A DNA stretch of 61,129 nt from a virus: positions 1 to 61,129 of the IMG/VR virus record IMGVR_UViG_3300022752_004478. One strand, 5' to 3'. Below the pieces are notes generated by a model. It did not search any database and was not told the origin of the DNA. It was given only the letters and a program-made list of their open reading frames with translations. Positions 1 through 6,834 of this stretch are shown in pieces. The first letter of the stretch is position 1; each line of letters opens with the position of its first letter. Both the position numbers and the translations under genes were made by a program.

Positions 1-420
1 AAGACCATATGTAATTGAATTTAAAATATTTGAATTATGAACAACAATGTTATTTGCATAATATTCACCAAATCCTTCGACTTGAATATCTACTAGGTCT
101 TCTCTTTTAGACTTATCAAGTGCTATATATTTAATTTGTTCAATACCATCTTTGGTACGAATATTTATTTTTGATATGTTATTAATTATATTTTCAATTT
201 TAATGAACTGACCCAAATCATTTTTAATCAAATGGTCTTTTGAGCCACAAAGTCTTTTTCCTGAATTTGTCTCAATTGTCCAATATTCTGAATCTTTAGA
301 TGTTATGTCATAAGTTAATATTTTTGAATATCCACAAGGAGTTTCAACCTCAATATTTAATTCAGGTAAAAAATCTTTTAAAAATCTAAGATTTTCAATC
401 TTTATTTGTTTTTCTGTCAT
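1..420 (-). CDS. gp46: C-terminal half of gp46/SbcC-like recombination ATPase, led by a split-intein C-part (runs off window)
   Basis: The frame opens with ATG at 418-420 and runs off the left edge. Residues 1-129 form a C-intein: a block-B-like SKDH motif near residue 60, a DIQV block F near 111-114, and the terminal VVHN. The next residue is Ser(+1), followed by the extein SNILNSITYGL. That extein continues the Walker A motif GENQVGK left hanging at the end of the gene at 5497-6834, restoring GENQVGKS and the helix after it, as in SbcC/Rad50/T4 gp46. The rest of gp46 (coiled coil, Walker B) must lie outside the window. It overlaps the end of the HAD-like gene by 26 bases. No catalytic ATPase residue beyond the P-loop Ser is visible here. 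The intein reading is highly confident; the gp46 identity rests on the partner half. Confidence 0.88.
   Translation of the reverse strand, partial: MTEKQIKIENLRFLKDFLPELNIEVETPCGYSKILTYDITSKDSEYWTIETNSGKRLCGSKDHLIKNDLGQFIKIENIINNISKINIRTKDGIEQIKYIALDKSKREDLVDIQVEGFGEYYANNIVVHNSNILNSITYGL
34..420 (-). other. C-part of an atypical split intein (129 aa)
   Basis: This is the coding segment of the C-intein. It starts at its own Met and ends in VVHN, directly before Ser(+1). It carries blocks B, F and G but no block A, and no LAGLIDADG or HNH endonuclease is visible. Block F has Asp at the F:4 position (LVDIQV), as in ordinary class 1 inteins. The split lies between blocks A and B, the layout known from AceL-TerL-type split inteins with very short N-parts. 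Its partner is at 5500-5586 on the same strand. Confidence 0.88.
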
Positions 421-970
421 TTTCAAGAATTGGAAATATATCTGTTATTGTATTAATTTTAATAGGGTGATTTTCAAAATTATTATCAGGGTCAAATAAA
501 ATAATTTTAGTATTGGTAAAATTTAAATCTTTTAATTTGTGATTAGCTGTTAATATGTAATCAAAATTTTCATTTATATATTCTTCAAATTTATTATAAA
601 ACCTTATTTGGTCAAAATAAAAACCTGCTGAAAAATTTGATAAATAAAATGCTGTTAAGTTTCTAAATTTATAACCCTCTCTTGAGATAATAATAATCTT
701 ATATCCTTGTTCAGATAATTCGGGATATATTTGATTTAATTGTGCAATTAACTCTTTTGATGGAAGAGTTGATTTAGCAAACAATTCATAAGAATATTGA
801 AATAGAAAATCTTCCAATTCATTCTTTTCAAAATAAAAAGAAAGTAATGGATTGTATGGGTCAATTGGTTTTTTTATTTCCCTATCAGAATATTCAATCT
901 GATAATATATTTCAAATTTTTTTATAAAATCTCTTAAAATACCATTTATTTCTATAGCCAAGGTCTTCAT
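395..970 (-). CDS. HAD-like hypothetical protein
   Basis: A 191-residue protein, counted from ATG 968-970. A 22-residue upstream extension in frame is aromatic and basic and is unlikely to be coding. The opening LAIEINGILRDF resembles the first HAD/nucleotidase motif but has Glu and Asn where the two catalytic Asp residues should be. A later IIIISREG resembles HAD motif II and LFDPDN a terminal acidic motif. The fold is therefore probably HAD-like, with the nucleophile lost. It ends 26 bases inside the C-intein gene, which suggests translational coupling. It diverges from the glycosyltransferase gene at 1022. Its role is unknown; an inactive HAD regulator or a degenerate nucleotidase are both possible. 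Confidence 0.5.
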   Translation of the reverse strand: MKTLAIEINGILRDFIKKFEIYYQIEYSDREIKKPIDPYNPLLSFYFEKNELEDFLFQYSYELFAKSTLPSKELIAQLNQIYPELSEQGYKIIIISREGYKFRNLTAFYLSNFSAGFYFDQIRFYNKFEEYINENFDYILTANHKLKDLNFTNTKIILFDPDNNFENHPIKINTITDIFPILENDRKTNKD

Positions 971-1021
971 GAAATAAATATAGGATTTTTTGTCGTATTT
1001 TAATGAAAACGTAAAAAAATA

Positions 1022-2095
1022 ATGGATAGGATACAAAAACTAAATGAAATTCTAAATAACATTAGTAGTAATAACTATAATGTTTATCTGTATGTTCCTT
1101 CTATTCCTGATACTGTTTATTCAATGGCAGTAGAAGAAATATACAAAATTTGTTTCTTTTTAAGAAAAAACAATTATAATGCTTTTTTAATTACGGGTGA
1201 AGATGAAAAAGAACCTGAATTTAAAATACCTAATTTTCTTAGCGAAGAATTAAAATCATTACCGCATCTTTCACCTAGAAAAGATAATATTAGCGTATCT
1301 GTTAATGATGTATTGATTGTTCCTGAATTTTTTGTAAATGTAATGCATCAAATTTCTGATGCAAAAATTCAATGTGAAAAAATCGTTCTTTGTCAATCAC
1401 AAACATACATGCTTGATTCTTTACCACCAAATCATACTTGGGCAGCATGGGGTTTTAGTACAATTCTAACAACGTCTGAACAATTAAAAGAATTTATTCA
1501 AAGAAATAGTAGAGTAAATTATAATATTGAAAATTATAAAATTGGTATACCTAGTTATTTTAAGTCAAGTAAAATTAAAAAACCAATTATTATGTATTTT
1601 TCAAGAAATGATTCTGATATCAAAAGATTGTCAAAGATTTTCTTTATGAAATATCCCGAACTTTCTTGGGTATTATTTGAAAGAGTACAGGGTTCTGAAC
1701 CATTCATTACAAGAAAAGAACTTGCAGAAAAAATGAGTGAAATACCTGTTCTACTTTGGCTTGATAGAGATGCAGGTTTTGGAACATTGCCACTTGAAGC
1801 AATGAAAAGTGGTGCTGTAGTTGTTGGTATGATTCCTGAAATTGAAAAAGATTATCTTAAAATAGATGATACCGCAATTTGGTCAAGTTCAATTGAAGTT
1901 CTTGCTGAACAACTTGGTGTTGTTATTAAAGAATGGTTGATTGATAATATACCTTCAGTTGTATATGAAAATATGGAAAAAGTTTCTTCTGAATATACAG
2001 AAGAAAATCATGAAAAAACACTAATTCAAGCTTTTTCAAATATCATTGAAAATAGAAGAAATTTAATTAAACAAGCAATAGAAAATGGAAATTAA
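1022..2095 (+). CDS. Glycosyltransferase, GT-B-like
   Basis: A 357-residue protein related to the gene at 19262-20218. Both share an N-domain stretch ending in a valine/isoleucine-rich VIPE motif, a VLCQSQTYML / VLAQSWIYIL motif, and a C-domain TLPLEAMKSGA / TLPLESMAANT motif that is the usual nucleotide-sugar-binding end of GT4 enzymes. It should transfer a sugar from a nucleotide donor, but donor and acceptor cannot be told. It overlaps the next glycosyltransferase gene by 11 bases and so is probably co-transcribed with it and the sigma gene. The upstream region has CGTATTTTAAT about 20 bases before the start, an element seen again before 48246. Confidence 0.75.
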   Translation: MDRIQKLNEILNNISSNNYNVYLYVPSIPDTVYSMAVEEIYKICFFLRKNNYNAFLITGEDEKEPEFKIPNFLSEELKSLPHLSPRKDNISVSVNDVLIVPEFFVNVMHQISDAKIQCEKIVLCQSQTYMLDSLPPNHTWAAWGFSTILTTSEQLKEFIQRNSRVNYNIENYKIGIPSYFKSSKIKKPIIMYFSRNDSDIKRLSKIFFMKYPELSWVLFERVQGSEPFITRKELAEKMSEIPVLLWLDRDAGFGTLPLEAMKSGAVVVGMIPEIEKDYLKIDDTAIWSSSIEVLAEQLGVVIKEWLIDNIPSVVYENMEKVSSEYTEENHEKTLIQAFSNIIENRRNLIKQAIENGN

Positions 2096-2888
2096 TAAAT
2101 TAGATTTAACAGTAATCATTCCAATTCATAATTTGGAAAATGATTTAGACAAAGAATTGTTTCAACAATCAATTGAATCTTTGTTTAACCAAAATAATAA
2201 CATTACACCTAGTGAAGTTATTATTATAACAAATAAAGAAACTCAAAAAGAAATTAAAACAGATAGACCAATAAGATTTGTCATTAATAATGAAACATCT
2301 GATAATATTCAATCACAAATAAATATCGCAGTTGAAGAATCTAAAACAGATTTCTTTATGGTATTAGATTTTGATGATGAATTAACATCAATCTATTTTT
2401 CAAATGTATTGAATTATATGCAAGAAATGAAAAATGTTGATATGTTTCTTCCAATAATTGCAGATGTTACAATGGATAAAAAAATTCATAGATATATCAA
2501 TGAAATTAATTGGGCAAAAGATGTAACAAATGATAAACACGGTTATTTGACAATGGAAACATTGATGAATTATAATCTTGTTTCAATTAATGGTGCGGTT
2601 ATAAGAAAAGAAAAATTCCAAGAAGCTGGTGGATTGAAACCATCAATTAAACTTAGTTTTATTTATGAATTTTTAATGCGTTTTACAAATATTGATGGAA
2701 TTACATATACAATTCCTAAAATCGGATATTTGAGAAAATTCGGTAGAGAAAATTCTTATCTAAGTGAACAATCTAAAATGGATGGTGATGAGGTTACTTT
2801 TTGGTGGAATCTTGCTAAAAAAGAATATGTTTGGCCTCATGATAGGAACAAAACATATGTAAAGAAGCAAGAAACACCAGTAATTTGA
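2085..2888 (+). CDS. Family 2 glycosyltransferase (GT-A)
   Basis: A 267-residue protein. It begins with a GT2-type beta strand, LTVIIPIHNLEND, followed by FFMVLDFDDELTS. The acidic DFDDE is the DxD-type metal and nucleotide-sugar site. It overlaps the upstream glycosyltransferase by 11 bases. The two probably work on the same glycan as the big minus-strand cluster, although they are separated from it by the gp47/AAA block. Donor and acceptor are not predictable. No membrane segment is visible, so a soluble enzyme is expected. Confidence 0.8.
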   Translation: MEINKLDLTVIIPIHNLENDLDKELFQQSIESLFNQNNNITPSEVIIITNKETQKEIKTDRPIRFVINNETSDNIQSQINIAVEESKTDFFMVLDFDDELTSIYFSNVLNYMQEMKNVDMFLPIIADVTMDKKIHRYINEINWAKDVTNDKHGYLTMETLMNYNLVSINGAVIRKEKFQEAGGLKPSIKLSFIYEFLMRFTNIDGITYTIPKIGYLRKFGRENSYLSEQSKMDGDEVTFWWNLAKKEYVWPHDRNKTYVKKQETPVI

Positions 2889-2890
2889 TA

Positions 2891-3688
2891 ATGTCTGAGG
2901 AAATAAAAAAAAATAAAAGAGGCAGGAAGGCAAAACCCGGCTCTGTAAAAGAATATTTTACCGATGAAACAGAAAAAGCTATTGTTAGATATAATAGCCC
3001 CGACTGTTCATTGGATGAAAAAAATCAAATATACGATAAAGATATTCATAAAGCACTTAAAAAACTTGCTTATTTTACAGCAAAATCTTATTTTCTTTAT
3101 TTCTCAAAGCGTTACACAATAGAAGATATGGAAAATGACCTTCTGATTTTTGCCTTTAATAACCTTCATATGTTCAATCCCGAAAATATAAATAAAAAAG
3201 GTGTTAAATCAAAGGCATTTTCCTATTTCTCTACAATATGTAGAAACGAAGCAAAACATATATCAGAAAGAAATTTTAATCAAGATAAAACAAGTGATGA
3301 TGTTGTAGAAAATATAAATCTATTTGAAAGAGATATTTCATTATCATATATTATTAATGAAAATCTTGATGAAGATAATGATAATAATTATATAAAATTA
3401 GTTTTTTTAGGTATATGTAATGAAATAAAAAATAAAATAGAAAACGATAAAACACTAAAAGAAATAGATGTTAATGTGGGTTATTCATTAATTTCAATTA
3501 TTGAAAATTTTAATTATATTAATGAACCAACTGAATCAAAAATGAGCCTTTTCTTTATAAATAATAGAGTTATTGATATGATTTGTGAAATCACAAATAA
3601 TAAATATAAAAAACAAGAAATTAAAAAATCACTTAAATCTTTTAAATCACTCTATAAAAAATTAAAAGAAGATTACTTATCTATCTGA
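2891..3688 (+). CDS. gp55: gp55-like late sigma factor
   Basis: A 265-residue protein from ATG 2891; a TTG six bases upstream, overlapping the previous stop, is possible but less likely. The N-terminus is basic (KKNKRGRKAK). Residues of about 55-130 look like sigma region 2: a long helix, then YTIEDMENDLLIFAFNN, FNPEN, and AFSYFSTICRNEA. This matches the pattern of T4 gp55, where an aromatic/PE motif is followed by PFAYFTQI. No region 4 helix-turn-helix is obvious, again as in gp55, which uses the sliding clamp instead. The family role is to direct host RNA polymerase to late promoters of the type TATAAATA. Such elements occur in this window inside the palindromes near 3835, 43868 and 52678. 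Identification is by motif pattern only. Confidence 0.68.
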   Translation: MSEEIKKNKRGRKAKPGSVKEYFTDETEKAIVRYNSPDCSLDEKNQIYDKDIHKALKKLAYFTAKSYFLYFSKRYTIEDMENDLLIFAFNNLHMFNPENINKKGVKSKAFSYFSTICRNEAKHISERNFNQDKTSDDVVENINLFERDISLSYIINENLDEDNDNNYIKLVFLGICNEIKNKIENDKTLKEIDVNVGYSLISIIENFNYINEPTESKMSLFFINNRVIDMICEITNNKYKKQEIKKSLKSFKSLYKKLKEDYLSI

Positions 3689-3831
3689 GGTTTTTGATTT
3701 GTATCACAACCACAATCTTTTTTGTAAGATGTATTACTTAACAAAAAAACAACAAAAGAAACTATTGAACTAATCCAATAATTTTCAAAGAAAAATTGTA
3801 ATACGAAAAAGCACAATAAAGCATGTAGCAT
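3673..3831 (-). CDS. Small membrane protein (52 aa)
   Basis: A 52-residue frame, ATG at 3829-3831 and stop at 3673-3675, overlapping the end of the sigma gene antisense by 16 bases. Residues 2-31 are almost wholly hydrophobic or aromatic (LLCFFVLQFFF, IVSFVVFLL), with room for one or two short membrane segments. A polar tail with a CGC motif follows. Its start lies 3 bases from the palindrome at 3835-3851, so it looks like a late gene transcribed away from the baseplate gene at 3857. A holin, antiholin or spanin-like helper is possible, but nothing specific identifies it. Confidence 0.5.
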   Translation of the reverse strand: MLHALLCFFVLQFFFENYWISSIVSFVVFLLSNTSYKKDCGCDTNQKPQIDK

Positions 3832-3834
3832 AAC

Positions 3835-3851
3835 CTATTTATATTAAATAG
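3835..3851. promoter_or_regulatory. Palindromic late-promoter-like element (divergent)
   Basis: CTATTTATATTAAATAG, with 6-bp arms CTATTT/AAATAG and a 5-base spacer. The minus-strand reading contains TATAAATAG, equal to the T4 late promoter TATAAATA plus G. It lies 5 bases before the ATG at 3857 and 3 bases before the ATG of the minus-strand gene at 3831, so it may drive both. Confidence 0.6.
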
Positions 3852-3856
3852 AAAAA

Positions 3857-4159
3857 ATGGACGAATTTAATATGTATGAAGGTTTTATAGATGATGATAC
3901 ATTCGCAACATTACCATTCTTTAATATACCCGAAACAGAAAATGACGCATATGTAGAATGGACCGTTGGTGATAGATTAGATAAATTAGCTTATAGATTC
4001 TATGATAATCCAGCACTATCAAAATTTATATTGTTGGCCAATCCACAATACTTAGCAGAAAGCGATATAGAAATTGGTGACATAATTAGAGTGCCACTAA
4101 CTAAAGATGATATGTTTAGTTTTATTAGACAAAAAGTAGAAGAATCAAAACTATTCTAA
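3857..4159 (+). CDS. LysM-domain baseplate wedge protein, gp53-like
   Basis: A 100-residue protein. Its centre has the LysM pattern of tail and baseplate proteins: YVEWTVGDRLDKLAYRFYDNP, then a helix ending in LANP, then IEIGDIIRVPL. T4 gp53, a baseplate wedge subunit, has the same kind of core but is about twice as long. It stands alone on the plus strand between minus-strand genes and directly behind the palindrome at 3835-3851, which fits a late structural gene. Its last 9 bases overlap the convergent KTSC gene. A tail-completion (gpX-like) LysM protein is the main alternative. Confidence 0.6.
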   Translation: MDEFNMYEGFIDDDTFATLPFFNIPETENDAYVEWTVGDRLDKLAYRFYDNPALSKFILLANPQYLAESDIEIGDIIRVPLTKDDMFSFIRQKVEESKLF

Positions 4160-4399
4160 GATTCTAATACCATTGTATCTGTTCTTTATAAACTCAATAA
4201 ATGCCTTTCCTGTTGATTCTGAATCTTGTAGTTTAACATAATCTTCAAAACTAACATTGTCATATCTATATGTTAAGTTGCCCTTAACAAAAGTTATATG
4301 CAAAGTGTTATTGTTGGTATCATAAATTGATGATACGATGTTTGATGAATCATAGGTAGCATTAATGAATCCATCTTCTTGTGTTACATTTGTTGTCAT
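4151..4399 (-). CDS. KTSC-domain protein
   Basis: An 82-residue protein that is nearly all one domain. The pattern SSNIVSSIYD, a beta pair TLHITFVKG, YRYDNVSFEDY and STGKAFIEFIKNRY fits the small KTSC domain found in many phage and bacterial proteins of unknown role. Its start overlaps the stop of the AAA gene at 4396 (ATGA), so it is probably translated with it. Its 3' end overlaps the convergent LysM gene by 9 bases. Function is unknown. Confidence 0.6.
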   Translation of the reverse strand: MTTNVTQEDGFINATYDSSNIVSSIYDTNNNTLHITFVKGNLTYRYDNVSFEDYVKLQDSESTGKAFIEFIKNRYNGIRILE

Positions 4400-5496
4400 A
4401 GATTTAATAATTCTTCATGTAGTTCTGAAATATTGTTAAAAGTTTTATCTGTTTGAAGATTAAATATTTTTTTTAAATCTTCAATTAAGTTTTCGCTTGG
4501 TTTTTGAACTTCTAATAAAACATCTGTTCTACCTTTTCTTTTAATAGCATCATCAATTTTATCAAGTTCATTTGTAGTTATTATAAATATAACATCATTT
4601 GGTGTATATATCCCATCTAAAATATTTAAAATGCAAGAAAGTGAAATTTTTACATCAGAATCTTTCTTTTCTTCTTTTCTATTGATATCATCTAATAAAC
4701 AATCAATATCTTCAAATAGTACAATTGATTTCTTTGGTCTATCCGAAATTAAAGCAATTAGATTAGCATCTGTCATATCTTTTGATAGGTTAACAGCCAT
4801 TATATCTCTTTTGGTATAATTAGATATACCTAATGACAATGATGATTTTCCTGTTCCGGGAGGACCATAAAATAAATATGTTCTTTTGTATCGTATACCA
4901 TACTGTTCGTATTTTTCTTTTGATGAATTAAATCTATCTAAATCATTTTTAAGAAATTCAGATACATGATTATCAAGATAAATATTATCAAAAGTTTTAT
5001 TTATGACTTTACCTGCACATCTAATTTCTCCATTAAAGTTATAAAAATACTTTATATATTTATTACCATAATTATTATCAACATAATCCATCAATTCTTT
5101 TAGAATTGTCTTGTTCCTACAAAATATCATAAACATATGTTTATTATTCTTATATGGTGTCATACTATTTTGGATATTTTCAGCATTTTTCAATACTAAA
5201 AATCTATTTCCTTTAAATTTAAAGTAAATAAATCCTGAGTTATAAAACATATTAACATCAAAATTATCTGAACTTATAAAATTATCATATAATGTTCTAT
5301 AGTAAAGATTTTTAATAGAACTATTTTTTTCAGATAAGACAAAGTTTTGAAAAGAATAAAAGAAAAAAGAACTTTCTTCAATTTTCATTGAACAAATAAC
5401 TCTATCTCTTAATGTAGTTAATACAAAAAGAAAAAATTGTTTGAAGTAAACTAATGTACCTCCAAGAATGAGTGTTAATAATACTGTTTTATCCAT
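4396..5496 (-). CDS. BCS1-like AAA+ ATPase with N-terminal membrane anchor
   Basis: A 366-residue protein. Residues 4-28 are hydrophobic and probably span the membrane. The AAA+ core has Walker A GPPGTGKS at 211-218, Walker B SIVLFEDID at about 253-261, a sensor FIITTNELDKID, and an arginine-finger-like RKGRTD. The sequence between anchor and core and the TTNELDKIDDAIKRKGR pattern are those of the BCS1 branch, whose mitochondrial member moves a folded protein across a membrane. It starts one base after the gp47 stop, so it shares that transcript. Its phage role is unknown; membrane-linked remodelling of a phage or host protein is an inference. Confidence 0.75.
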   Translation of the reverse strand: MDKTVLLTLILGGTLVYFKQFFLFVLTTLRDRVICSMKIEESSFFFYSFQNFVLSEKNSSIKNLYYRTLYDNFISSDNFDVNMFYNSGFIYFKFKGNRFLVLKNAENIQNSMTPYKNNKHMFMIFCRNKTILKELMDYVDNNYGNKYIKYFYNFNGEIRCAGKVINKTFDNIYLDNHVSEFLKNDLDRFNSSKEKYEQYGIRYKRTYLFYGPPGTGKSSLSLGISNYTKRDIMAVNLSKDMTDANLIALISDRPKKSIVLFEDIDCLLDDINRKEEKKDSDVKISLSCILNILDGIYTPNDVIFIITTNELDKIDDAIKRKGRTDVLLEVQKPSENLIEDLKKIFNLQTDKTFNNISELHEELLNL

Positions 5497-6834
5497 TTAT
5501 CTTAAAAATTCAGGTAAATAACCTAGTTTACTTATTATTTCTTCTTTATTATATCTAATATTAATCTTTGTTTCAGGATGAACACATTTACCAACCTGAT
5601 TTTCTCCATAGATTTGAATAATTCCATTCTTATCAGTTAAATCAAGTTCATATCTTTCTCCATGTGATTTAAAGTTATCTAGTACAATCTTTTTAACTTT
5701 CCAATCATAAAATTGATTCTCTACATCCTTTTCAATTAATGAACTAATTTCACTATCAAGTGCCAAAACATCCTTTATAAAATCTTCATTATGATTCTTT
5801 GATTTTAGAAAATTAATAAACTCTTGCCTTACACTATCATCATTATTTAAATCAATTGTTTCATCAAATTCTTTAATCTTTAAAGATTTATTAAGAATTT
5901 TTGATTTATCAAATTTGATAGTGGTGAATTCGCCATATTTAGATTCTAAGTGTTTCTTTATTTTTTGCTTGTTTTCAACATTAAATGTTGAATATTGGTC
6001 CATCCAATGAATTTTAAGATGGTTATATTTACCAATATTTGTAAGTTCAATATTTAGATTTTCATAATCATAATCTTCATGGATATATACATTAAAATAT
6101 TTATAATCAGAGATTATTTCTTTCTTTTCAAAAGTCTTTGCTTCAATATCCCATAAAAGATAACCATGAAAAGCATTATCACCTTCACCATAATTGGTAC
6201 AATATAATGATGATGGGTAAGCAAAAAATTCCTTTCCATTTTTTTGATATGATTGTTGGAGATGTATATCTCCTGCCATCACAATATCGCCTTTAAAATC
6301 AGCAAGAGAAACAATATTACTATCGGTATGTAATTGCCCATTTTGGAGATAGCATCCATTAATTGGGTCATGGAAAAGGTCAATATAAAACTTATTATTA
6401 TCACGCTCTTCTTCATTGAATTCAATCCAAGGTGATTTTCTGTCAGGGTGATACCAAACAGCAAAAGTAATGTTATCAAGTTCAAAAAGGCTTGTTGTGT
6501 CATAATAGTGTATATTAGGATTATTAATAATCTCAATAAGCATCTTAATAGATGACATTCTATTGAGATTTGATTTCATTATATCATGGTTACCATCAAT
6601 AATAACAATAGGTGCAATACTTGCACAAGATGTTAAAAAATCACCTGCAATGACATTAATTTCATTAAATGGTTTTACATAATTATGAAATAAATCACCT
6701 GCAATTACAATTAAATCAGGTTTGTCATTTAAAAGTGATTTAATCGTTTGAGAGGAAATATGTTTTTGCTCAGAAATCCTTTCCAAGTTATTTTGGAAGT
6801 GAATGTCGGCAAGATGGGCAACTTTGCGAATCAT
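5497..6834 (-). CDS. gp47: gp47/SbcD-like nuclease fused to the gp46/SbcC N-terminus and a split-intein N-part
   Basis: A 445-residue protein. Residues 1 to about 370 are an Mre11/SbcD/gp47 phosphoesterase with metal-binding motifs ADIHF (D10, H12), GDLFH (46-50), GNHD (81-84) and GDIH (188-191). From about residue 377 a second protein begins without its own Met: VKKIVLDNFKSHGE, then IIQIYGENQVGK (to 416). This is the gp46/SbcC N-terminus and Walker A. It breaks off after the P-loop Lys into a 29-residue N-intein starting CVHPETKI and stops. The partner C-half is at 1-420. Trans-splicing would give one gp47-gp46 polypeptide that resects and processes DNA ends in recombination-dependent replication. 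A TATATTTG box lies directly upstream, so the mRNA may be leaderless. Confidence 0.88.
   Translation of the reverse strand: MIRKVAHLADIHFQNNLERISEQKHISSQTIKSLLNDKPDLIVIAGDLFHNYVKPFNEINVIAGDFLTSCASIAPIVIIDGNHDIMKSNLNRMSSIKMLIEIINNPNIHYYDTTSLFELDNITFAVWYHPDRKSPWIEFNEEERDNNKFYIDLFHDPINGCYLQNGQLHTDSNIVSLADFKGDIVMAGDIHLQQSYQKNGKEFFAYPSSLYCTNYGEGDNAFHGYLLWDIEAKTFEKKEIISDYKYFNVYIHEDYDYENLNIELTNIGKYNHLKIHWMDQYSTFNVENKQKIKKHLESKYGEFTTIKFDKSKILNKSLKIKEFDETIDLNNDDSVRQEFINFLKSKNHNEDFIKDVLALDSEISSLIEKDVENQFYDWKVKKIVLDNFKSHGERYELDLTDKNGIIQIYGENQVGKCVHPETKINIRYNKEEIISKLGYLPEFLR
5500..5586 (-). other. N-part of the split intein (29 aa)
   Basis: The coding segment starts with Cys1 (TGT, 5584-5586) directly after the P-loop Lys and ends at the stop. 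CVHPETKINIRY matches intein block A (Cys1 with the conserved Thr and Ile). Twenty-nine residues is far shorter than the roughly 100 of ordinary split inteins, and resembles AceL-TerL-type N-parts of about 25 residues. Its C-part is at 34-420. Confidence 0.88.

What the first reader, a model, noticed from the sequence alone, without database searches (positions are those of the whole stretch)
1..6834. gp46/SbcC is fractured and rejoined by an atypical split intein
Seen directly: the minus-strand gene at 5497-6834 ends in the P-loop GENQVGK followed by a 29-residue N-intein (CVHPETKI...). The minus-strand gene at 1-420 starts with a 129-residue C-intein ending VVHN, then SNILNSITYGL. Joining the exteins restores GENQVGKS and the helix after it. 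Split inteins in fractured phage genes are known for gp41, NrdA, NrdJ, IMPDH and TerL. A split between blocks A and B with such a short N-part is known from AceL-TerL-like inteins. I do not know of a described case in gp46. The precursor would have no intact P-loop, so recombination would depend on trans-splicing.
Basis: partly seen in the sequence, partly recalled or inferred. Interest (0 to 1): 0.92.

Follow-up and report, generated by a model that had tools for sequence, protein, structure and literature searches.

The report
Split intein in phage SbcD–SbcC gene
A family of uncultivated large phages encodes its DNA-repair nuclease-ATPase (an SbcD–SbcC fusion) in two far-apart pieces that apparently must be joined by a split intein cut exactly into the ATP-binding loop, a new host gene for a known kind of self-splicing element.

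Summary
The window is a whole IMG/VR contig. Its 5497-6834(-) gene is not gp46 alone. It is an SbcD (Mre11/gp47) nuclease fused to the start of SbcC (gp46), running into the Walker A loop GENQVGK and then a 29-residue N-intein. Gene 1-420(-) is a 129-residue C-intein ending VVHN, then SNILNSITYGL, then the contig end. Six other contigs that reach both sites (five distinct sequences) show the same two parts 4.0-5.8 kb apart, with opposite-strand genes between. Untruncated C-parts supply the missing SbcC: zinc hook CPSC, signature, Walker B ILLLDE and IIEH. Twenty-five distant relatives have an uninterrupted SbcD–SbcC P-loop, so the empty site is documented. The joined intein matches gp41-1 by profile (E=3.8e-7), and the C-part model's best fold match is VidaL. 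The scan also found sister inteins in gp41 helicase: contiguous, split in place, and fractured around a reverse-strand HNH endonuclease. All catalytic residues except the block F histidine are invariant, and the intein is under purifying selection. I found no published gp46/SbcC/Rad50 intein in the open-access library searched. It is a new member of a known kind. Splicing itself is not shown.

The parts
5587..6834 (-). N-extein, 416 aa: SbcD/Mre11-like nuclease (about residues 1-365) fused to the first lobe of SbcC up to Walker A GENQVGK
   Evidence: Metallophos 1e-11; sbcd TIGR00619 2.5e-12; phrog_35725 fusion family 5.8e-21; PDB S. aureus SbcD 1.3e-11 by profile and 3.5e-15 by fold; SbcC-lobe motif NFKS...GIIQI.GENQ.GK aligned to intact fusions
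5500..5586 (-). N-intein, 29 aa, CVHPETKINIRYNKEEIISKLGYLPEFLR (block A with Cys1), stop codon 5497-5499
   Evidence: Profile match in all N-part contigs; TIGR01445 intein_Nterm spans N+C when joined, best 6.9e-5, 6 of 6 members; CVHPETK shared with inteins of gp41 helicases
34..420 (-). C-intein, 129 aa, with blocks B (SKDHL), F (LVDIQVEG..YYANN) and G (VVHN)
   Evidence: PF14890 sub-threshold, 6 of 6 members; gp41-1 intein 3.8e-7 by profile; AF2 model best PDB matches VidaL 1.8e-6 and gp41-1 1.6e-5
1..33 (-). Start of C-extein, SNILNSITYGL (SbcC after Walker A Lys); the rest (about 716 aa) lies beyond the contig end and is read from relatives
   Evidence: Continuation in L005, L008, L009, L018: zinc hook, SGSGMER signature, ILLLDE Walker B, IIEH
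421..5496 (.). Interval between the halves: BCS1-like AAA ATPase (-), KTSC-like protein (-), baseplate-wedge/LysM protein (+), unidentified 264-aa protein (+), two glycosyltransferase-like genes (+), HAD-like gene (-); no homing endonuclease recognised
   Evidence: ORFs, Pfam/PHROG, same order in relatives; the KTSC, glycosyltransferase and HAD labels are by eye only

Best explanation
A class-1-like mini-intein inserted between Lys and Ser of the SbcC Walker A loop was broken near its N-terminus, between blocks A and B. The SbcD-SbcC fusion gene is now two separate genes. The first makes SbcD plus the first SbcC strands plus a 29-aa N-intein; the second makes a 129-aa C-intein plus the rest of SbcC. 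After translation the two intein parts associate, Cys1 attacks, the N-extein moves to Ser+1, Asn158 cyclises with help from His157, and one SbcD-SbcC chain with a restored GENQVGKS loop is released. Shown: the anatomy, the seamless empty site in relatives, conservation of catalytic residues, purifying selection, and fold similarity. Inferred: association, the splicing chemistry, and the need for splicing before any ATP binding.
For: Both halves occur together in all contigs long enough, 4.0-5.8 kb apart. Joining gives exactly the intact homologue: window GENQVGK|SNILNSITYGL and relatives' ...YGTTFDTLKKEKNRDNKFIN against LR756501 GGENQQGKTTIIDAICFILYGTTISTQKTEKNGNNRYIN. 25 of 25 distant fusions have an uninterrupted P-loop. 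The joined intein profile matches gp41-1 3.8e-7 and intein_Nterm across the split. C-part model to VidaL 1.8e-6. Contiguous sister inteins in gp41 match positions 1-158. C1, S89/H92, D140, H157, N158 and +1 Ser invariant in the clade. NG86 dN/dS medians: N-intein 0.14, C-intein 0.20, exteins 0.08 and 0.15.
Against: No splicing was measured. Pfam intein scores are below the curated cut-off. The histidine usual in block F is missing in the whole clade (EG-G[EQ]YYANN instead of xNHRYY). The C-intein diverges faster (57-75% identity for most pairs, one at 92%) than the exteins (77-96%). The AF2 model of the C-part alone is only moderate (mean pLDDT 64).
Confidence: 0.92

Rival explanations
1. The split intein is present but splicing is conditional (redox, DNA, temperature or stoichiometry of two separately transcribed genes), so it acts as a switch on SbcCD activity. 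This is a refinement of the best explanation rather than its opposite.
For: Halves are in different transcription contexts with opposite-strand genes between; the insertion is at the Walker A Lys-Ser bond, so activity should be nil until splicing; conditional splicing in a recombinase intein (RadA, ssDNA) is described in the literature (cited in PMC8987985); the block F His is lost.
Against: Nothing in the sequence requires regulation; no extra domain on either half.
Confidence: 0.15
2. The intein has decayed and the two polypeptides work as a non-covalent pair, or SbcD works alone while SbcC is being lost.
For: C-intein evolves faster than exteins; sub-threshold Pfam score; block F His missing.
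Against: Cys1, block B His, block F Asp, block G His-Asn and Ser+1 are invariant; dN/dS of both intein parts is well below 1 and that of the SbcC ATPase half is about 0.11-0.15. A loop broken between the Walker A Lys and Ser with 29 and 129 residues attached could hardly bind ATP.
Confidence: 0.05
3. The split is an RNA-level or assembly matter (trans-spliced intron, misassembly, frameshift) and not a protein intein.
For: The window contig ends 11 residues into the C-extein, so it alone cannot exclude this.
Against: Independent contigs from several metagenomes have the same arrangement; the sequence at both break points is intein coding sequence with HINT matches; a stop codon ends the N-part at the same place in seven of eight N-part sequences (three codons later in L003).
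Confidence: 0.02

Closest known systems
VidaL split intein (PDB 6VGV; 16-aa N-part)
   Same: Atypical split after the first strands; Cys-dependent; best fold match of the C-part; closest solved sequence (1.7e-9) of the sister gp41 intein in L071
   Different: N-part 16 against 29 aa; the gp46-clade N-part has an extra conserved tail (KLGYLPEF)
gp41-1 intein (fractured phage helicase)
   Same: Best sequence-profile match (3.8e-7); mini-intein in a phage replication ATPase; Ser+1 (Ser+1 of gp41-1 from memory)
   Different: Split at the canonical endonuclease site; different extein
AceL-TerL and GOS-TerL atypical split inteins (25 and up to 37-aa N-parts, per PMC13014065)
   Same: Short N-part, split between blocks A and B, phage gene
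   Different: Terminase extein; these split after the first helix (S2), whereas here alignment to contiguous sisters leaves that helix in the C-part
Fractured genes with split inteins (Dassa et al. 2009, recalled; MIJ3 PolB in PMC6892783)
   Same: Host gene broken into two distant genes joined by a split intein
   Different: No homing endonuclease found between the halves; halves 4-6 kb apart with several unrelated genes. The sister gp41 loci L071-L073 do have the endonuclease
SbcD-SbcC single-chain fusions of jumbo phages (phrog_35725; Tenacibaculum PTm1, Chryseobacterium MA9V-1, megaphage LR756501)
   Same: Same gene fusion and domain order
   Different: Uninterrupted P-loop, no intein there

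Membership tests
Intein (HINT, class 1) | Nucleophile Cys/Ser/Ala at position 1 | tested here: met
   Cys1 in all N-parts
Intein (HINT, class 1) | Block B T/SxxH | tested here: met
   S89..H92 invariant
Intein (HINT, class 1) | Block F Asp | tested here: met
   D140 invariant in LVDIQVEG
Intein (HINT, class 1) | Block F His | tested here: not met
   EG-G[EQ]YYANN in all six C-inteins aligned; sister gp41 inteins keep NHRYY. Not strictly required where block G His is present (general knowledge)
Intein (HINT, class 1) | Block G His-Asn and C/S/T at +1 | tested here: met
   HN|S invariant
Intein (HINT, class 1) | HINT fold | tested here: met
   C-part AF2 model matches VidaL, gp41-1, NrdJ-1, Hedgehog; moderate pLDDT; joined model not run
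Intein (HINT, class 1) | Precise insertion in an otherwise intact gene | tested here: met
   Empty site in L022 and 24 others
Intein (HINT, class 1) | Splicing activity | not testable with these tools
   needs co-expression
Atypically split intein | Two genes, N-part 15-37 aa, split between blocks A and B | tested here: met
   29 and 129 aa; range from PMC13014065
Atypically split intein | S1 (after beta2) or S2 (after alpha1) site | tested here: inconclusive
   Alignment to contiguous sisters suggests S1 plus an extra N-tail; tail modelled as a short helix at modest confidence
Fractured gene with homing endonuclease between halves | Endonuclease gene in the interval | tested here: not met
   None recognised in the window interval; same gene order in relatives
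SbcD/Mre11 | Phosphoesterase motifs and metal ligands | tested here: met
   D10, H12, D47, N82, H83, H155, H191 invariant across 24 sequences; Asp189 in place of one His
SbcC/Rad50 | Walker A, zinc hook, signature, Walker B, H-loop | tested here: met
   GENQVGK+S, CPSC, SGSGMER, ILLLDE, IIEH; Rad50 chain 1.2e-7; SbcC_Walker_B 9e-6, just below cut-off

The most novel reading that the evidence does not exclude
A split intein placed at the Walker A Lys-Ser bond of a fused SbcD-SbcC makes DNA-end processing an AND gate of two separately transcribed phage genes, so that splicing times recombination during infection; the conserved extra N-tail (KLGYLPEF) would be a dedicated docking or control element not seen in other atypical split inteins.
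Probability: 0.12. Interest if true: 0.8.

Novelty: new member of a known kind. Interest (0 to 1): 0.55.

Why it matters
It adds SbcC/gp46, within an SbcD–SbcC fusion, to the short list of phage genes known to be fractured by split inteins, at a site where ATP binding should be impossible before splicing. The related gp41 loci found here give what looks like a stepwise series (contiguous, split in place, fractured with an endonuclease), which makes the open question of how atypical split inteins arise testable by comparison. A natural 29-aa N-part intein with Ser+1 may also be a useful ligation tool.

Tried and rejected
Reading past the left edge of the window is impossible because it is the contig end, so relatives were used. 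Pfam, PHROG and NCBIfam on the single halves gave only weak intein hits. The intein has no tblastn match in 50,697 phage records. The fusion was not found by a pattern scan of 84,980 prokaryote genomes (low sensitivity). The PF14890 profile search of the contig missed it. Paper searches for a gp46, SbcC or Rad50 intein found no report; the 2009 fractured-genes paper and the 2012 natural split intein paper are not held. An Rfam intron in L055 was sought and not found.

Full report
What was checked. The window is a complete IMG/VR record of 61,129 bp. The two minus-strand ORFs exist exactly as described. The N-part (5497-6834) ends GENQVGK then CVHPETKINIRYNKEEIISKLGYLPEFLR and a stop. The C-part (1-420) begins MTEKQIKIENLRFLKDFLPELNIEVETP, has a 129-residue C-intein ending VVHN, and breaks off after SNILNSITYGL because the contig ends.

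The gene is an SbcD–SbcC fusion. The N-part hits Metallophos (1e-11), sbcd (2.5e-12), S. aureus SbcD by profile (1.3e-11) and by predicted fold (3.5e-15), and phrog_35725, a 1,376-position family of fused phage proteins. Metal ligands are invariant over 24 sequences, with one His replaced by Asp.

Relatives supply the missing half. A scan of viral contigs gave nine loci with 88-92% identical N-parts; further scans gave complete C-parts. In L009 the C-part is 856 aa from the conserved ATG: C-intein, then about 727 aa of SbcC with zinc hook CPSC, SGSGMER, ILLLDE and IIEH. The profile of this extein hits Rad50 at 1.2e-7. Every record long enough to hold both halves has both, in the same order and strand, 4.0-5.8 kb apart, with baseplate-wedge, unidentified and glycosyltransferase-like genes on the opposite strand between them. 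L005 and L006 are identical, so the count is six distinct sequences including the window.

Empty site. Searching with the N-extein alignment gave loci at 33-42% identity; with megaphage LR756501 (L022) there are 25 distant fusions. All have an uninterrupted P-loop. Most are read as single ORFs of about 1,100-1,250 aa; L053/L057 are 1,437 aa because of an insertion in SbcD, L055 is interrupted in SbcD, and L045 is cut by its contig end. Several of the 25 are near-copies of each other. L022 reads GGENQQGKTTIIDAICFILYGTTISTQKTEKNGNNRYIN; joining the exteins of the window clade gives GENQVGKSNILNSITYGLYGTTFDTLKKEKNRDNKFIN, with no residue gained or lost.

It is one intein. A profile of the joined 158 residues hits the gp41-1 intein in the PDB (3.8e-7), and intein_Nterm spans the break, matching all six members (best 6.9e-5); the Pfam intein model matches all six but below its cut-off. 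AlphaFold2 of the C-part (moderate confidence) best matches VidaL (1.8e-6), then gp41-1 and other inteins. The profile search over 3,818 ORFs of the loci returned only intein-bearing ORFs.

Sister inteins show a path. A scan with the joined alignment found inteins with the same start CVHPETK[IV] inside the Walker A region of gp41-like helicases (ALAG|TGVGKS; helicase by PHROG). L066, L069/70 and L074-77 are contiguous. L067/68 are split in place, the 21-aa N-part stopping just before the ATG of the C-part. L071 (15-aa N-part) and L072/73 (18-aa N-part) are fractured around a reverse-strand HNH homing endonuclease. This makes a plausible route, inferred and not demonstrated: contiguous intein, break between blocks A and B, separation by an endonuclease, later rearrangement. 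No endonuclease was recognised in the SbcC interval.

Selection. Cys1, block B Ser and His, block F Asp, block G His-Asn and Ser+1 are invariant in the clade. Median NG86 dN/dS is 0.08 (N-extein), 0.14 (N-intein), 0.20 (C-intein), 0.15 (C-extein). The C-intein changes fastest but is still constrained. The block F histidine is absent in the whole clade, and the N-part carries a conserved tail (EEII.KLGYLPEF) that contiguous sisters lack in the alignment.

Known or new. Published natural N-parts range from 15 to 37 aa (PMC13014065), so 29 fits. No report of an SbcC, gp46 or Rad50 intein was found in the open-access library, which does not hold the 2009 and 2012 key papers. The intein has no match in 50,697 phage records. 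I rate it a new member of a known kind in a new host gene; splicing is inferred, not shown. A marine origin was not tested; a Bacteroidetes host is only hinted at by weak matches to Flavobacterium phages and by the hosts of the fused homologues.

Noticed in passing
L071:8707-11236: gp41 helicase in at least three pieces: 15-aa VidaL-like N-intein, reverse-strand HNH endonuclease, then a C-part that itself ends in a second N-intein (CIYAEEEVTLIDG..., PF14890 30 bits at its end). Two split inteins in one helicase.
   Followed up: partly
L067, L072, L073, L066, L069, L074: Sister gp41 Walker A inteins in contiguous, in-place-split and fractured states, a natural series for the origin of atypical split inteins.
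   Followed up: partly
L053:8780-13090 and L057: SbcD-SbcC fusion with a contiguous LAGLIDADG-type intein in the GNHD motif of the SbcD nuclease (PF14890 38 bits, PF14528 weak).
   Followed up: partly
L055:10001-14303: SbcD-SbcC gene interrupted near the GHIH motif by an endonuclease-like ORF; no Rfam intron found.
   Followed up: partly
window:4396-5496: BCS1-like AAA ATPase directly after the N-part in most relatives (after a 202-aa ORF in L005), absent in L009.
   Followed up: no
L074-L077, ORF after gp41: A second C-intein-like start in the next ORF (profile positions 128-158), suggesting another split intein in the same helicase.
   Followed up: no
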